DNA from: Roseomonas sp. HF4
GTDB taxonomy: Bacteria > Pseudomonadota > Alphaproteobacteria > Acetobacterales > Acetobacteraceae
Reading direction: 5' to 3'
DNA length: 64,000 nt
Assembly (NCBI RefSeq): GCF_005222755.1
Contig: NZ_STGD01000018.1
Coordinates: 1 to 64,000, forward strand
This document shows positions 19,672 to 26,102 of this stretch, one piece after another. Under the pieces are notes generated by a model, which was not told the origin of the DNA, made no database searches, and saw only the letters and a program-made list of their open reading frames with translations. A program made the position numbers and the translations under genes. Numbering within the stretch: the first letter of the stretch is position 1; each line of letters begins with the position of its first letter.

Positions 19672-21246
19672 ATGAAGAAGACCCTGATGGGCGCGGCTGC
19701 GGCGGCGGCCGCGTTGCTCGCTGCGGGTGCCGAGGCGCAGACGCTGCGCATGGGCGTCGGCGCGCAGATCACCTCGACCGATCCGCACTTCCACAATATC
19801 TCACCCAACAACGCCTTCGCCTCGATGGTGTTCGACAACCTGATCGAGACGGACGCGAATGCGCGCCTGGTCGCGCGGCTGGCGGAATCCTGGCGCCCGG
19901 TGGGCCAGGATGCCTGGGAGTTCAAGCTGCGCCGGGGCGTGCGCTTCCACAACGGCCAGGACTTCACCGCCGAGGACGTGGTCTTTACCTTCGAGCGCAT
20001 CCCCCGCGTGGTGAACAGCCCGGGCTCCTTCCGCACCTACACGCAGGGCGTGCAGTCGATCGAGGTGGTGGATTCCCACACGATCCGATTCCGCACCGGC
20101 GGCCCCTTCCCGCTGCTGCCGGTCAACCTCGCGCAGGTGCCGATGCTCGACCGGCAGACGCACGAGGGCGCGGCGACGGAGGACTTCAACTCGGGCCGCG
20201 TCGCGATCGGCACCGGCCCCTTCCGCATGGCCGCGCACCGGCCGGGCGAACGCATCGACCTCGAACGCTTCGACGGCCATTGGGGAGACCGGCCCCATTG
20301 GCAGCGCGTGGACTACCGGATGATCACCAACGATACCTCGCGCACGGCGGCGCTGCTCGCGGGCGATGTCGACTTCATCGACCAGGTGCCGACCACGGAC
20401 ATCGAGCGCCTGCGCCACGACCAGCGCGTGCGGCTGACCGAGATCGACAGCCTGCGCTTCATCTACTTCGCCATGGACCACATGCGCGACGGGCCATCGC
20501 CCTTCATCACGGACAATGACGGCCGGCCGCTGCCGCGCAATCCGCTGAAGGACATCCGGGTGCGCCAGGCGCTGACCCTGGCGATCGACCGGCACGCCAT
20601 CGTCGCGCGCGTGATGGAGGGCGTGGCCTCGCCGACCACGCAGCTGATGCCCGAGGGCGCCTTCGGCTACGTGCCTGACCTGGTAGCCCCGCGCGCCGAC
20701 CCCGAGCGTGCGCGTGCGCTGCTCGCCGAGGCCGGCTATCCGAACGGCTTCCGCATCACCCTGCACGGTCCGAACGACCGCTACCCGAACGATGCGCGCA
20801 TCGCCCAGGCGGTCGGGCAGATGTGGACGCGGGTCGGCGTGCGGACGCAGGTCGACGTGGCGCCCTTCGCCTCCTTCGTCGCGCGGGCGTCGCGGCAGGA
20901 GTATTCGGCCTTCCTGGTGTCCTGGGGCAGTTCCACCGGCGAGCCCTCCTCCGGCCTGCGTTCGGTCATCGCGAGCTATGACCGCGCGCGGGGCACCGGT
21001 TCGGTGAACCGCGGCCGCTACTCGAACCCCCAATTCGACGAAACGCTCGCGCGCGCCATGCGTGAGCTCGATGACGGGCGGCGCGAGGCGCTGATGCAGG
21101 AAGCGACGCGCGTCGCGATCAACGACGTCGGGATCATCCCGACCCACCTGCAGCGCAATGTCTGGGCGATGCGCCAGGGCTTCGCCCATACCCCGCGGGT
21201 GGACGAGCGCACCCGGGCGCAGGACGTCCGGCCCGCCGGAAACTGA
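19672..21246 (+). CDS. Peptide/nickel-type ABC transporter substrate-binding protein
   Basis: A 524-residue family 5 extracellular solute-binding protein. The signal peptide (MKKTLMGAAAAAAALLAAG, cut near AEAQ) is followed by the family opening DNLIETDANARLVARLAESW, then LRRGVRFHNGQDFTAEDVVFTFE and IGTGPFRM. No permease or ATPase genes lie next to it, so it must use a transporter encoded elsewhere or serve as an orphan receptor. As last gene of the operon with the TauD, FAH and Ldh proteins, it likely captures their substrate or a precursor. A strong hairpin follows its stop. Confidence 0.93.
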   Translation: MKKTLMGAAAAAAALLAAGAEAQTLRMGVGAQITSTDPHFHNISPNNAFASMVFDNLIETDANARLVARLAESWRPVGQDAWEFKLRRGVRFHNGQDFTAEDVVFTFERIPRVVNSPGSFRTYTQGVQSIEVVDSHTIRFRTGGPFPLLPVNLAQVPMLDRQTHEGAATEDFNSGRVAIGTGPFRMAAHRPGERIDLERFDGHWGDRPHWQRVDYRMITNDTSRTAALLAGDVDFIDQVPTTDIERLRHDQRVRLTEIDSLRFIYFAMDHMRDGPSPFITDNDGRPLPRNPLKDIRVRQALTLAIDRHAIVARVMEGVASPTTQLMPEGAFGYVPDLVAPRADPERARALLAEAGYPNGFRITLHGPNDRYPNDARIAQAVGQMWTRVGVRTQVDVAPFASFVARASRQEYSAFLVSWGSSTGEPSSGLRSVIASYDRARGTGSVNRGRYSNPQFDETLARAMRELDDGRREALMQEATRVAINDVGIIPTHLQRNVWAMRQGFAHTPRVDERTRAQDVRPAGN

Positions 21247-21249
21247 GCC

Positions 21250-21284
21250 CGGTGCCGGGACGGCACGGGGCCGTCCCGGCACCG
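21250..21284 (+). terminator. Strong 14-pair hairpin after the peptide-binding-protein gene
   Basis: CGGTGCCGGGACGG (21250-21263) pairs perfectly with CCGTCCCGGCACCG (21271-21284) around a seven-base loop, just after the stop codon. The sequence beyond (ACATGAAAGG) has no T-run, so release may need Rho. It separates the catabolic operon from the three-gene unit beginning at 21358. Confidence 0.7.
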
Positions 21285-21357: not shown

Positions 21358-22548
21358 ATGAGCGAGACTGCAGTCACCGTGCAGCCCATGCGCTACCTCG
21401 ACAAGGCGATGGGCGCGCTTCGCGACCTCGGCCTTTCCCTGCCGGAGGCCTCGGCCGAGGAAAGCCCGATCACCGGCCTGCTGTCCAAGATCATGGTCGT
21501 GGACCAGGACCGCGTGACGCTGATCGCCCGCGTCCTGAACCAGGCCAGCACCTTCAACGAGGTGGTGCGCGAGCAGATCAAGGCGATGGAGGTCGGCCAG
21601 CGCTACGAGACGATCACCGAGGCCTTCAATTCCATCCGCGACGACGCCCGCGGCATGGTCGCCCAGATGGAGGACGGCCGGATCTCCACCATGGAGCGGC
21701 TGACGAACGTCTGGCAGAAGGCGACGCGCGGCGACATCGCCTCCCGCTTCAACAAGATCCGCGACACCTACCTGGAGGTGTCGAAGGACACGAAGGAGAA
21801 CATCGACCGCGAGCACGCGATCCTGGAGGCCTACCGCGACTTCCGCGGCGCGATGAAGCAGGCCGAGGTACTGGCGCTCGAGGTGCTCAAGACCGCCGAG
21901 GGCCGCCTCAACGCCGCGAAGGACGCGACCGACGCCGCGGTGAAGGCCGCGGAGGGCGCCGGCGCGCTGGAGCCCGCCGAACGCGCCAAGCTGGAACTCG
22001 CCCGCGACGAGGCGCTGCGCCACCTGCAGCTCGAGGAAGGCAAGTACCAGATCGCCAAGGACCTGTCGGACAACCTCACGGTCTCCTACAACACGTCCGA
22101 GGTCATCATGGCCCGCCTGGTGCAGATCACCACGGCCAAGGAGCGCGTCTACCAGCAGTCGGTGTCCTTCTTCTCGACCAACGAGGCGGTGCTGACGGCG
22201 CTCACCGCCTCCTTCACCGGCATGCACGGGCTGCACGAGAGCACCCGTACGCTCGAGAACATGAAGGCCGGCGTGAACCAGTCCCTGGAAGTGCTGGCCG
22301 AGATCGGCGGCAAGGTCCAGGAAGCCGCGCTGCGCGCCGGCTACGGCCCGACCATCCAGGCCGACGCGGTGAAGAAGCTGGTCGAGAGCGTGGTGTCCTA
22401 CCAGGAGCACTCGCGCGAGATCATCGAGGAGATGCGCGACGCCGCGACGCGCAACAGCGACGAGATCCGGCGCTCGGTCGAGGAAGCGAAACAGCGCATG
22501 GCGCGGCTGCAGCAGCGCGCCGCGACCGTCGTCGCGACGAATGCCTGA
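21358..22548 (+). CDS. Large alpha-helical protein of unknown function, first gene of a coupled trio
   Basis: A 396-residue protein without signal peptide or membrane segment. It is almost entirely helical, rich in Ala, Glu, Lys and Arg, with heptad-like runs at about residues 130-260 and 300-385. An N-terminal block (SPITGLLSKIMVVDQDRVTLIARVL) precedes the long helices. It looks like a cytoplasmic scaffold, recalling PspA-like or chemoreceptor-like helical bundles in composition only. I considered TelA (toxic anion resistance) but do not see its conserved core. Its stop overlaps the start of the next gene by 8 bases. The cluster context is discussed under findings. Function unknown. Confidence 0.85.
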   Translation: MSETAVTVQPMRYLDKAMGALRDLGLSLPEASAEESPITGLLSKIMVVDQDRVTLIARVLNQASTFNEVVREQIKAMEVGQRYETITEAFNSIRDDARGMVAQMEDGRISTMERLTNVWQKATRGDIASRFNKIRDTYLEVSKDTKENIDREHAILEAYRDFRGAMKQAEVLALEVLKTAEGRLNAAKDATDAAVKAAEGAGALEPAERAKLELARDEALRHLQLEEGKYQIAKDLSDNLTVSYNTSEVIMARLVQITTAKERVYQQSVSFFSTNEAVLTALTASFTGMHGLHESTRTLENMKAGVNQSLEVLAEIGGKVQEAALRAGYGPTIQADAVKKLVESVVSYQEHSREIIEEMRDAATRNSDEIRRSVEEAKQRMARLQQRAATVVATNA

Positions 22549-23476
22549 CACCTCGGCGCGGGCGCCCGCGCTCGACGAGACCATGATGGCGATGGACGTG
22601 GTGGACACGATCCGCCACGCCGACCGCCTGGTCGAGCGCGAGCTGCTGGGCGCCGACCGCCAGGTCCGGCTGCGCGAGCGGCTGCGCGAGATCTACACCT
22701 CCCAGGGGATCGAGGTCGCGGACCATGTCCTCGACCAGGGCATCCTGGCGCTCGAGGAGAAGCGCTTCGCCTATGCGCCGAAGGGGGAGGGCTGGCGCCG
22801 CTCCCTCGCGGTCGCCTGGGCGACGCGGGGGCGGTGGGGCAGGTTCGCTGCCGCCGGCCTCGGCGCGCTGGTGCTGCTCTACGGCGCCTACTGGTTCACC
22901 GTGGTCGCGCCGCAGAACCGCGAGGCGGCCGCCATCGCGCGCGAATTGCAGCAGGACCTGCCGCGCGCGCTGCGCGCCGAGTACGACCGGGTGCTCGTCG
23001 GCACGCAGGAAGCGCCGCCGCGCGCCGAGGCCGCGCGGCTGCTGGCCGAGGGCGAGGCCGCGGCCCGGGCCGGGCGCCTTGCCGACGCGCGCGCGCGACG
23101 CGATGCGCTGGCGGATCTCGCCGCGCGCCTTGCCGCCGCCTACAGCGTGCGCATCGTCAACCGTCCGGGCGAGGCCTCGGCGGTGTGGCGCGTGCCCGCC
23201 GCCAATCCGCGCGCACGCAACTACTACCTGGTCGTCGAGGCGGTGGACCGCGACGGGCGGCCGGTCGAGGTGCCCATCACGAGCGAGGAGGATGGCCGCG
23301 TCGCGCGCGTCTCCCGCTGGGGCCAGCGCGTCCCGGAGGCGGTGTTCGAACGCGTCCGCCAGGACAAGCTGGCCGACGGCATCATCGACCAGCCGGTGAT
23401 CGGCCAGAAGGCGGCGGGGTCGATGGATACGCGCTGGACGGTCGAGACGAGCGGAGGGGCGATCCTGGCATGGTAA
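22541..23476 (+). CDS. Single-pass membrane protein, DUF6384-like, second gene of the trio
   Basis: A 311-residue protein. Residues 1-100 are soluble and helical, opening with LDETMMAMDVVDTIRHADRLV. One membrane helix (about 102-122, FAAAGLGALVLLYGAYWFTVV) follows. A charged coiled coil occupies about 125-205, and a beta-rich C-terminal domain (about 205-311) ends at GGAILAW. The opening fits my recollection of the DUF6384 family, which has no described function; that link is unverified. The ATG at 22541 lies inside the 3' end of the previous gene and the stop overlaps the next start. The topology suggests it anchors its partners at the membrane. Confidence 0.85.
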   Translation: MPDTSARAPALDETMMAMDVVDTIRHADRLVERELLGADRQVRLRERLREIYTSQGIEVADHVLDQGILALEEKRFAYAPKGEGWRRSLAVAWATRGRWGRFAAAGLGALVLLYGAYWFTVVAPQNREAAAIARELQQDLPRALRAEYDRVLVGTQEAPPRAEAARLLAEGEAAARAGRLADARARRDALADLAARLAAAYSVRIVNRPGEASAVWRVPAANPRARNYYLVVEAVDRDGRPVEVPITSEEDGRVARVSRWGQRVPEAVFERVRQDKLADGIIDQPVIGQKAAGSMDTRWTVETSGGAILAW

Positions 23477-25017
23477 GCGGCGCGACCGTCCTGCAGGAGA
23501 TGGATGGCCGCATGGCCGAGGCGCAGCGCGAGCTGTCCGCCGCGCAGACCGAGGCCGACCGCCTGGCCGCCCGCCGCGACGGCCTGCGCGCCGAGGAGGC
23601 GGACGCGCTGCGCGACCTCGCGCGGCTGCGCGTGCAGGAGATCACGGAGGGCAAGGCCGCGCTCGACGCGCTCGACACCGCGGGCGCCCGCGTGCGGGAG
23701 AGTCTGCGGCGCCGCGCCGAGGGGCTGGAGGCGGCGCAGCGCGCGCTCCTCGATGCGCGCGACGCGCTCTCGGCCGCCGAGGCGCGCCGCGACGCCGAGG
23801 CCGCGAAGCTCAGGGCGGAGGAGGATGCGGAGGCCGCATTGCTGCGCGACGCCGAGGCCCGCGCCGCCGAGGATGCCGACTACCGGCGGATCGCGACCGC
23901 GGCGGAGGAGGCCGAGCGAACCGCGCAGCACGCCGAGCAGAAGGCCGGCTTCGCGCAGCGCGACTTCGAGGAGAAAGGCGCGCCCTACCGCGCCGATCCG
24001 CTCTTTGCCTACCTTTGGGATCGCGGCTGGGGCACCGGGCGCTATCGCGCCATGCCGATCGTCCGCATGCTGGATGGCTGGGTGGCGCGGCTGATCGAGT
24101 TCGAGCCGGCACGCCGATCCTATGCGCTGCTCGCCGACCTCCCGGGCCACATGACGGCCCACGCGCAGCGCATGCGGGCGAACGCCGATGCCGCCGTGCG
24201 CGCCATGGTCGAACGCCGCCGCGCCATCGCGGGGCTTCCGGCGGAACGGAAGCCCTCCACCGGCGCGCTGGAGGCGGCCGAGGATGCGGTGGACGCCGCC
24301 GAGGCGGCGCTCGCGCAGGCCGAGGCGCGGCGCAGCGCGCTCGCCGCCGGCGACGACCCGGATTCGCAGGCGGCGATCCAGGCGCTGGAAGCGGCGATCG
24401 GCGCGCGGTCGCTGCGCACGCTGCGGGAGGAAGCCGCGCGAACGCCGACACGGGAGGACGATGCCATCGTCGCGCGGCTCGAGATCGCGGCGGCCGAGCG
24501 CGGCCGCGTCGAGACCGCGCATGCGGAGGCGGCCGTCCAGGCGGAAGCCGCGCGACGGCGCATGTCCGAACTGCAGTCGCTGCGGCAGGACCTGCGCAGC
24601 CGCGGCGTCGAGCACGGGCAATGGGGCTTCGCTTCCGGCGCCGCAGTGGGCCTGCTGCTCGGGGAGGTGCTGCGCGGAACGCTGTCGCGCGACGGCTTCT
24701 GGGACCGCATGGAACGCCAGCGCATGCCGGGTACGATGCAGGGTTCGAGCAGGCCCGGACCCTGGAACCGTCCGCTGCCAGGCCCCTGGGACAAGCCGGC
24801 CGCCAAGCCGGGGCCCTGGTCGGACGGCGGCAAGGACAATGGCTGGTGGGGCGGCGAGCCGGCCGGCACGCCCTGGAGCAAGCCTGCGAAGCCGCTGCCG
24901 GATGCCCCCGGGGCCAAGGGCGGCGACTGGCAGGGTGGCGGAGACGGCGGGGGCGGCTTCTCCACGGGCGGGCGAAGCGACCGTGGCGGCGGCTTCCGCA
25001 CCGGCGGATCGGTCTGA
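23470..25017 (+). CDS. Coiled-coil protein with Gly/Pro/Trp-rich tail, third gene of the trio
   Basis: A 515-residue protein. Residues 1-170 are a long Ala/Arg/Glu coiled coil. The segment YRADPLFAYLWDRGWGTGRYRAM (around 175-200) is the most ordered-looking, non-repetitive part. A second coiled coil runs to about 380. A short hydrophobic stretch (GFASGAAVGLLLGEVL, about 386-401) is followed by a tail of about 100 residues with three PGPW repeats, WW and GGGGF/GGGF blocks. The start ATG at 23470 overlaps the previous stop. The tail resembles in style the glycine-rich ends of YgcG/TPM-type membrane proteins. Function unknown. Confidence 0.85.
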   Translation: MVSGATVLQEMDGRMAEAQRELSAAQTEADRLAARRDGLRAEEADALRDLARLRVQEITEGKAALDALDTAGARVRESLRRRAEGLEAAQRALLDARDALSAAEARRDAEAAKLRAEEDAEAALLRDAEARAAEDADYRRIATAAEEAERTAQHAEQKAGFAQRDFEEKGAPYRADPLFAYLWDRGWGTGRYRAMPIVRMLDGWVARLIEFEPARRSYALLADLPGHMTAHAQRMRANADAAVRAMVERRRAIAGLPAERKPSTGALEAAEDAVDAAEAALAQAEARRSALAAGDDPDSQAAIQALEAAIGARSLRTLREEAARTPTREDDAIVARLEIAAAERGRVETAHAEAAVQAEAARRRMSELQSLRQDLRSRGVEHGQWGFASGAAVGLLLGEVLRGTLSRDGFWDRMERQRMPGTMQGSSRPGPWNRPLPGPWDKPAAKPGPWSDGGKDNGWWGGEPAGTPWSKPAKPLPDAPGAKGGDWQGGGDGGGGFSTGGRSDRGGGFRTGGSV

Positions 25018-25088: not shown

Positions 25089-26102
25089 ATGACATTCCGT
25101 CGTTCCATCCTGGTCGCCGCGACGGCGGCCGCCTTCGCCGCGCCGGGCCTGGCGCTCGCGCAGGCGCCGTCCTTCTTCCGCATCGGCACCGGCAGCGCCG
25201 GCGGCACCTACTACCCGATCGGCGGCATCGTCGCGAACGCCCTGTCCTGCCCGCCTGGCGCGGCATGCAACACGGCCGGCGCGACCGACGGCATCCCCGG
25301 CATGGTCGCGGTGGCGCAGGCGACCCAGGGCAGCGTGCAGAACGTGGCCATGGTGCAGGGCGGCAACGCCGAGGCCGGCTTCGCGCAGTCCGACGTGACG
25401 CACTGGGCCTACACGGCCACCGGCCTGTTCCAGGGCCGCCCGGCGGCGGACCGCATCCGCTTCGTCGCGCACCTGTTCCCCGAGCACATCCACGCCGCGG
25501 TTCGCCGCGACAGCCCGATCCAGTCCTTCAACGATCTGCGCGGCAAGCGCATCGCGATCGGGCTGCAGGCCTCGGGTGCGCGCATCGGCTCGGAGCTCAT
25601 CCTCGGCGCCTATGGCCTCCAGGCCGGCCGCGAATTCACGGCCGAATACCTGAACCAGGCCCAGGGCACCGAGCGCATGCAGGACCGCGGGCTGGATGCG
25701 ACCATCACCGTGGTCGGCTACCCTGCCGCCGCCTTCGTGGAATTCTGCAGCCGCACCGGCTGCCGCTTCCTGCCGGTGCCGGAGGCCGAGGCGAACCGCG
25801 TGATCGAGCGCGCGCCCTTCTACGGCCGCGGCGTCATTCCCCGCACCGCCTATGAGGGGCTCGAGGCGGACGTGCCGACGCTGACCGTGGGCGCGGTGCT
25901 GATCGTGCGCGACAGCCTGCCGGACGACCTCGTCTACAACATCACGCGCGCGCTGTGGTCGCAGACGACGCGCGGCCTGCTCGACCGCGGCCATGCCAAG
26001 GGGCGCGAGATCGTGCGGGAGAACGCGCTGAGCGGCCGCGGCGTCGTGCCGTTCCATCCGGGCGCCGAGCGCTTCTATCGCGAAGCCGGCCTGCTGCGCT
26101 GA
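25089..26102 (+). CDS. TAXI-family TRAP transporter solute-binding protein
   Basis: A 337-residue periplasmic receptor. The signal peptide is cut near ALAQA (about residue 25). The TAXI hallmark FRIGTGSAGGTYYPIGGIVANAL follows at once. SFNDLRGKRIAIGLQASGARI and the C-terminal GVVPFHPGAERFYREAGL (FHPGAxxYxxE-type) complete the signature. Two cysteine pairs (SCPPGAAC; CSRTGC) may form disulphides. It is followed 16 bases later by a fused TRAP permease, so the pair is a complete importer. TAXI receptors often take glutamate-like or other carboxylates; the ligand here is unknown. Confidence 0.95.
   Translation: MTFRRSILVAATAAAFAAPGLALAQAPSFFRIGTGSAGGTYYPIGGIVANALSCPPGAACNTAGATDGIPGMVAVAQATQGSVQNVAMVQGGNAEAGFAQSDVTHWAYTATGLFQGRPAADRIRFVAHLFPEHIHAAVRRDSPIQSFNDLRGKRIAIGLQASGARIGSELILGAYGLQAGREFTAEYLNQAQGTERMQDRGLDATITVVGYPAAAFVEFCSRTGCRFLPVPEAEANRVIERAPFYGRGVIPRTAYEGLEADVPTLTVGAVLIVRDSLPDDLVYNITRALWSQTTRGLLDRGHAKGREIVRENALSGRGVVPFHPGAERFYREAGLLR

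What the first reader, a model, noticed from the sequence alone, without database searches (positions are those of the whole stretch)
21358..25017. Coupled three-gene unit of helical, membrane and Gly/Trp-tailed proteins with no known function
Three genes overlap by 8 and 7 bases and are fenced off by a strong hairpin upstream. They encode a 396-residue all-helical soluble protein, a 311-residue single-pass protein (DUF6384-like from memory) with a beta domain beyond the membrane, and a 515-residue coiled-coil protein with a hydrophobic patch and a Gly/Pro/Trp tail. The coupling implies a fixed-ratio complex, plausibly a membrane-attached scaffold or envelope-stress device. I know of no described system with this set. 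This is my first candidate for the undescribed system.
Basis: partly seen in the sequence, partly recalled or inferred. Interest (0 to 1): 0.75.

Follow-up and report, generated by a model that had tools for sequence, protein, structure and literature searches.

The report
Mobile three-gene membrane module, undescribed
Three neighbouring bacterial genes of unknown function travel together as one cassette on chromosomes, on giant plasmids and in one giant phage, and probably build a device attached to the inner membrane; no paper we could search mentions its one named family, and what it does is still untested.

Summary
Window 21358-22548, 22541-23476 and 23470-25017 encode A (396 aa), B (311 aa, Pfam DUF6384, E 8e-112) and C (515 aa), overlapping by 8 and 7 bases behind a very strong hairpin. 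A and C match no Pfam, NCBIfam, PADLOC or PDB sequence family. The trio is a real unit. A-B-C occur in this order in 74 of 81 loci found through B alone, and 5 of the other 7 are contig ends. The same holds on all ten megaplasmids examined (Pseudomonas, Rhizobiales; A down to 37% identity). Yersinia jumbo phage phiR1-37 carries g190 (A), g191 (B) and g192 (C-like). Flanking genes share no recurrent family, so the cassette is self-contained. The base overlaps, however, are a local feature.

AlphaFold gives A as long helices, and B as a cytosolic head, one membrane helix and a periplasmic helix-plus-beta domain. C ends in a conserved GGFxTGGGF tail. The two Devosia loci that lost A also lost that tail, which hints that the tail binds A. 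Sequence tests do not make A a TelA or a pore toxin; weak structural echoes of both remain. Best guess: a membrane-anchored module protecting the envelope, function inferred only.

The parts
21246..21284 (+). Strong hairpin between the upstream gene and the trio (probable 3' end of the upstream transcript)
   Evidence: RNA fold -39.9 kcal/mol, z -6.0; no T run, not called as a terminator
21358..22548 (+). Gene A: 396-aa soluble all-helical protein, the most conserved of the three (mean pairwise identity 66% in the chromosomal set; 40% to the phage copy)
   Evidence: no Pfam/NCBIfam/PDB sequence family
22541..23476 (+). Gene B: 311-aa DUF6384 protein; cytosolic helical head, one membrane helix (about 102-124), periplasmic helical hairpin and beta domain (201-311), conserved C-terminal Trp
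   Evidence: Pfam PF19911 E 7.9e-112; AlphaFold pLDDT 85; hydropathy; alignment; C-terminal W in 99 of 108 closed B ORFs
23470..25017 (+). Gene C: 515-aa coiled-coil protein with a conserved core (PYRxDPLFxYLW...D...), an amphipathic patch at residues 387-405 and a Gly-rich tail
   Evidence: only SMC-type coiled-coil background in family scans
24946..25014 (+). C-terminal tail of C with the GGGFxTGG repeat, ending GGGFRTGGSV in this genome (GGFxTGGGF in most relatives)
   Evidence: 80 of 88 closed C ORFs keep the terminal motif; the two loci without A have lost it

Best explanation
The three genes are one self-contained, horizontally mobile module. Shown here: the fixed gene set and order, co-inheritance, and B's predicted topology. 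Inferred: B sits in the inner membrane with its N-terminal helical head in the cytosol and its helix-plus-beta domain in the periplasm. C is a cytosolic coiled-coil adaptor that goes with B, since the B-C pair can exist without A. C's Gly/Phe tail recruits A, a long-helix protein, to the membrane. The assembly then shields or repairs the inner membrane when the envelope is disturbed. That would make it work like, but without being, the TelA/XpaC or phage-shock systems: a membrane anchor plus a peripheral helical protein. On megaplasmids and in the jumbo phage the same device would keep the host envelope usable for the element. Joint physical unit: likely (about 0.8). Envelope protection as its task: the confidence given below.
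For: Synteny and order in 74 of 81 loci found through B only; 5 of the 7 exceptions are contig ends. tblastn searches with A and with B hit the same 11 plasmids, and all ten fetched plasmids carry A, B and C. Phage phiR1-37 carries g190 = A (E 2e-134), g191 = B (E 1e-40) and g192 in C's place, ending FSSSDSF like the Pseudomonas Cs. The A, B and C trees agree across chromosomes, plasmids and phage, r 0.83-0.92 against a permutation maximum of 0.49. Two complete copies sit in one genome. No recurrent neighbour family among 92 flanking proteins. B topology. Joint loss of A and of C's tail motif in two Devosia MAGs. Pseudomonas megaplasmids L135 and L136 carry a StiP-PELOTA 'tellurite-like stress' gene about 2.4-2.5 kb upstream of the trio. 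In the window's genus, TelA (with an XpaC-like neighbour) is found only where the trio is missing: 9 against 13 of 23, never both.
Against: No physical contact was tested. The TelA/trio exclusion is one event on an rpoB tree, and in the wider set TelA is only weakly depleted (1 of 50 against 31 of 289, Fisher p 0.06). No homology of A to TelA by profile comparison (probability 11-21%). StiP linkage holds on two plasmids only. The joint loss of A and the tail is seen in two related MAGs, probably one event, and the Dfl-JY45 pair keeps ...VTGGGF without A. Nothing in the sequence demonstrates a stress role.
Confidence: 0.38

Rival explanations
1. Membrane-tethered cytoskeletal or organising scaffold: A and C are long-helix and coiled-coil proteins that assemble along the inner membrane from B and organise large elements or cell architecture, rather than answering stress. 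This would suit giant plasmids and a jumbo phage.
For: Carriers outside chromosomes are large replicons (0.32-1.39 Mb plasmids, 262 kb phage). C has only SMC/MukB-like coiled-coil background. In the record Dfl-JY45 the B-C pair stands beside a DUF3584 (MksB/JetC-type) gene and an MksE gene. A is strongly conserved (66% mean identity), as scaffolds often are.
Against: Most copies found are chromosomal; no partition or SMC gene recurs beside the chromosomal trios. Coiled-coil similarity is not specific, and B's periplasmic domain is unexplained.
Confidence: 0.2
2. Anti-phage or inter-element defence module: B senses or marks the membrane and A permeabilises it, killing or protecting the cell.
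For: Mobile and patchy distribution (2 of 289 alphaproteobacterial genomes; 2 of 398 in the phylum, not counting two weak partial matches); phage and plasmid carriage; structural echo of A to ClyA-type helical pore formers (XaxA Z 14.6 over 281 residues; 15 of the first 16 rows).
Against: No PADLOC match of any weight. A evolves slowly, unlike toxins or defence effectors. No defence-island neighbours. Helical models commonly reach Z about 14 by chance (note).
Confidence: 0.15
3. A is a far-diverged TelA and the trio is a TelA system with new partners (toxic-anion or cell-wall-antibiotic tolerance).
For: Same size and helical make-up; TelA of phage ctHip2 is among the best TM-scores in the viral library (0.35; rank 40 by E); mutual exclusion with XpaC-TelA inside the genus; weak co-linear hhalign match of A 24-100 with TelA 47-111.
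Against: No PF05816 match; probability 11-21% only; reciprocal HMM searches find nothing; the exclusion is a single clade-level event; no XpaC gene in the trio.
Confidence: 0.17
4. Unrelated genes kept together by chance or by a shared regulator, without forming a complex.
For: The base overlaps vary between clades; no contact was computed.
Against: Order survives transfer to megaplasmids and a jumbo phage with very different base composition (GC 32-71%), and the trees agree.
Confidence: 0.08

Closest known systems
Pfam PF19911 DUF6384 (family of unknown function)
   Same: B is a full-length member (E 7.9e-112)
   Different: The family has no function; its fixed partners A and C have no family of their own in Pfam or NCBIfam
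TelA (PF05816) with XpaC, toxic-anion / cell-wall-antibiotic tolerance (Listeria lmo1966-1967, PMC12791056)
   Same: A soluble helical protein of similar size in an operon with a small membrane protein; TelA/XpaC occupies the genomes of the genus that lack the trio
   Different: No sequence homology shown; no XpaC; extra coiled-coil gene; B has a periplasmic beta domain
ClyA-type alpha-helical pore formers (XaxA/YaxA, AhlB, SmhB, MakA)
   Same: Similar long-helix arrangement in the predicted model of A (Z 13-14.6, 230-280 residues aligned)
   Different: No family match by sequence; slow evolution; partners are not of that fold; model confidence only 69
Phage-shock (PspA) envelope response
   Same: Idea of a membrane protein recruiting a peripheral helical protein
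   Different: No PspA match for A; PspA was not searched for elsewhere in these genomes; resemblance is conceptual

Membership tests
DUF6384 (PF19911) | Full-length match above the curated cut-off | tested here: met
   373.8 bits against a cut-off of 25, residues 6-311
TelA (PF05816) | Profile match of A to PF05816 | tested here: not met
   No hit at E<=1; own genome has no PF05816 match; hhalign probability 11-21%; reciprocal HMM searches negative
TelA (PF05816) | Same helical fold | tested here: inconclusive
   No solved TelA structure; one viral TelA model at TM 0.35 in the BFVD search; model pLDDT 69
TelA (PF05816) | XpaC-type partner gene | tested here: not met
   Neither B nor C matches XpaC or any family but DUF6384
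ClyA-type alpha pore-forming proteins | Sequence match to a known family of the group | tested here: not met
   No such hit in Pfam, NCBIfam or the PDB sequence search with the A1 profile
ClyA-type alpha pore-forming proteins | Fold | tested here: inconclusive
   15 of the first 16 VIA rows, Z 11.6-14.6, but the background for helical models reaches about 14
ClyA-type alpha pore-forming proteins | Pore formation | not testable with these tools
   Needs purified protein
Phage-shock protein (PspA/IM30) | PspA domain in A | tested here: not met
   No Pfam match
Known anti-phage defence systems | PADLOC model match | tested here: not met
   Only E 0.016 or weaker, coiled-coil type
Ter/StiP stress cluster | Linkage to Ter/StiP genes | tested here: inconclusive
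   StiP-PELOTA upstream on two megaplasmids; nothing recurrent on chromosomes

The most novel reading that the evidence does not exclude
A hitherto undescribed three-component inner-membrane machine, shared by chromosomes, megaplasmids and a jumbo phage. A Gly/Phe C-terminal tail on the coiled-coil adaptor (C) captures the long-helix protein (A), which then inserts into or remodels the membrane from the cytosolic side under control of B's periplasmic beta domain. It belongs to no known stress, defence or secretion system.
Probability: 0.3. Interest if true: 0.85.

Novelty: categorically new. Interest (0 to 1): 0.62.

Why it matters
A gene set kept in order on chromosomes, megaplasmids and a jumbo phage must do something that very different replicons need. 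None of its proteins has a characterised relative, so it cannot be inferred from known biology. It gives DUF6384 a defined context (A before it in nearly all loci, C after it), supplies sharp predictions (C's tail binds A; B and C are the minimal pair), and offers a phage-encoded copy and tractable non-pathogenic hosts for testing. 'Categorically new' is used in that sense only: no part could be placed in a known system. If A proves to be a distant TelA, it would become a new variant of a known kind.

Tried and rejected
TelA homology of A: the ungapped resemblance seen by eye around A 230-267 did not survive hhalign or reciprocal HMM searches. TelA/trio exclusion as strong evidence: a rpoB tree shows it is one clade-level event (a first tree was spoiled by wrong-frame ORFs and discarded). 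Neighbour enrichment: 92 flanking proteins from 24 loci share no family beyond transporters and housekeeping genes. All-against-all clustering of flanking ORFs returned mostly antisense shadows of A and C. Fold searches: B's beta domain found nothing, as the matches fill only the helical hairpin 112-199; A gave no Foldseek hit below E 0.001 in the PDB or BFVD. PHROGs gave nothing. More phage copies: six scans of viral contigs and the phage collection returned only phiR1-37 for A. Literature on DUF6384 and on the RefSeq name 'merozoite surface protein 3b' in Pseudomonas plasmids: zero papers.
Full report
WHAT IS THERE. The window is an alphaproteobacterial chromosome of the Neoroseomonas/Roseomonas group; the nearest relatives with the same genes are Neoroseomonas. 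Three + strand genes lie at 21358-22548 (A, 396 aa), 22541-23476 (B, 311 aa) and 23470-25017 (C, 515 aa), overlapping by 8 and 7 bases. A and C have good ribosome-binding sequences; B has none. A very stable hairpin (-39.9 kcal/mol, z -6.0) follows the stop codon of the upstream substrate-binding-protein gene and separates it from the trio. Downstream, at 25089, begins a substrate-binding-protein gene of the TAXI type (name from memory). The flanking transport genes are not shared by relatives and are not part of the finding.

FAMILIES. B is a full-length DUF6384 protein (PF19911, E 7.9e-112). A and C match nothing of weight in Pfam, NCBIfam, PADLOC or PHROGs, and the proteins match no solved structure by sequence, alone (A, B) or as profiles (A, B, C). 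No held paper mentions DUF6384. RefSeq names of A such as 'cell surface protein' or 'merozoite surface protein 3b' look like coiled-coil annotation artefacts.

THE TRIO IS A UNIT. I searched 85,000 species genomes with B alone and asked independently whether A and C were there. 74 of 81 loci have A-B-C in that order and strand; five of the other seven are cut by a contig end. The range covers Acetobacteraceae, Devosiaceae, Stappiaceae, Hyphomonadaceae, Salinarimonas, Rhodomicrobium and several Gammaproteobacteria. In PLSDB, separate searches with A and B hit the same 11 plasmids, at A identities down to 37%. All ten that I fetched carry C as well. They include Pseudomonas plasmids of 0.34-1.17 Mb (pMPPla107 among them) and plasmids of Microvirga, Bradyrhizobium, Rhizobium and Methylorubrum. 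Yersinia jumbo phage phiR1-37 (262 kb) carries g190 (A, 40% identity, HMM E 2e-134), g191 (B, E 1e-40) and g192. g192 has no significant match to the C profile, but it has C's place, size, coiled coil and terminal motif (...GGGFSSSDSF, as in the Pseudomonas Cs). Trees of the three proteins agree across all these carriers (pairwise-distance correlations 0.83-0.92; permutation maximum 0.49), and the phage copy of A groups with Pseudomonas megaplasmid copies. One alphaproteobacterium has two complete trios. The trio is rare: 2 of 289 genomes of the class, and 2 of 398 of the phylum apart from two weak partial matches. Its neighbours share no recurrent family (92 flanking proteins). So it is a self-contained, mobile cassette. 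What is not conserved is the base overlap: A and B are usually 30-230 bases apart, while B and C stay close.

ANATOMY. A is the slowest-evolving protein (mean pairwise identity 66% in my chromosomal set, against 44% for B and 32% for C). Its AlphaFold model is all long helices (pLDDT 69; two helices of 73 and 82 residues, a poorly predicted Gly-containing stretch 286-333 that is highly conserved, then a 61-residue helix). B (pLDDT 85) has a cytosolic three-helix head, one membrane helix near 102-124 with positive charges on the N-terminal side, a periplasmic helical hairpin and a beta domain at 201-311, and ends in Trp in 99 of 108 closed ORFs. The Pseudomonas-plasmid and phage Bs are longer (440-500 aa) because of extra sequence between membrane helix and beta domain. 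C is a coiled coil with a conserved core, an amphipathic patch and a Gly-rich tail that repeats GGGFxTGG and ends GGFxTGGGF (FSTSDSF in Pseudomonas); 80 of 88 closed C ORFs keep it.

A CLUE TO THE WIRING. Two Devosia MAGs (L079, L080) have B and C at the usual Devosia locus but no A there or anywhere in the assembly. Exactly these two Cs stop just before the terminal motif, with no frame-shifted remnant behind. The record Dfl-JY45 also has B-C without A, with a partly altered tail (...VTGGGF). B-C is therefore the minimal pair, and the tail of C is the best candidate for the site that holds A. This rests on probably one loss event in two incomplete genomes and is a prediction, not a result.

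WHAT IT MAY WORK LIKE. (i) Envelope-protection module: suggested by B's topology, by a StiP-PELOTA 'tellurite-like stress' gene beside the trio on two megaplasmids, and by the fact that in the window's genus genomes carry either the trio (13) or TelA with an XpaC-like neighbour (9), never both (the XpaC name is from memory of the family, read off the neighbouring ORF). A Listeria TelA mutant is more sensitive to nisin and tellurite, and lmo1966-1967 is an XpaC-TelA operon (PMC12791056). The exclusion is a single clade-level event on an rpoB tree, and TelA depletion in a wider set is weak (1 of 50 against 31 of 289, p 0.06). (ii) Membrane-active helical protein: a VIA comparison of A's model puts ClyA-type pore formers in 15 of the first 16 rows (XaxA Z 14.6, 281 residues, rmsd 4.5), but helical models reach such values by chance, the model is of middling confidence and no sequence relation exists. 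(iii) TelA: hhalign probabilities 11-21%, reciprocal HMM searches negative, one viral TelA model at TM 0.35. I therefore do not file A under TelA or under the pore formers.

VERDICT. The function is open. I favour a membrane-anchored complex (B anchor, C adaptor, A effector) that protects the envelope, at about 0.38, with scaffold, defence and distant-TelA readings as live rivals.

Noticed in passing
L079:7950-10275; L080:1761-4122: Two Devosia MAGs keep B-C at the usual locus but lack A in the whole assembly, and their C proteins lack the GGFxTGGGF tail.
   Followed up: partly
L143:5978-13891 (Dolichospermum phage record Dfl-JY45): B-C pair without A stands beside a DUF3584 (MksB/JetC-like) gene and an MksE gene. 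The stretch is 66% GC, odd for a phage of a cyanobacterium whose GC I recall as about 38%, so the record may be mislabelled.
   Followed up: partly
L134, L135, L136 downstream of C: A dCTP deaminase gene (dcd) lies 0.2-2.6 kb downstream of the trio on three Pseudomonas megaplasmids.
   Followed up: no
L135:5492-6562; L136:5618-6685: A StiP cysteine protease (PELOTA domain found in the L136 copy) and a peptidyl-tRNA-hydrolase-like gene lie upstream of the trio on two Pseudomonas megaplasmids.
   Followed up: partly
L132:17806-18852: Type IV CRISPR gene csf2 lies about 5 kb downstream of the trio on the P. aeruginosa PA83 plasmid.
   Followed up: no
L082, L086 and same-genus genomes: One clade of the window's genus carries TelA with an XpaC-like gene instead of the trio, at a different locus.
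   Followed up: yes
L139:10129-11172: B on the Methylorubrum extorquens AM1 megaplasmid aligns in two pieces and has lost the usual end; it may be frame-shifted.
   Followed up: no
L132, L133 (RefSeq annotation): A is named 'merozoite surface protein 3b' in Pseudomonas plasmids, evidently a coiled-coil annotation artefact.
   Followed up: no
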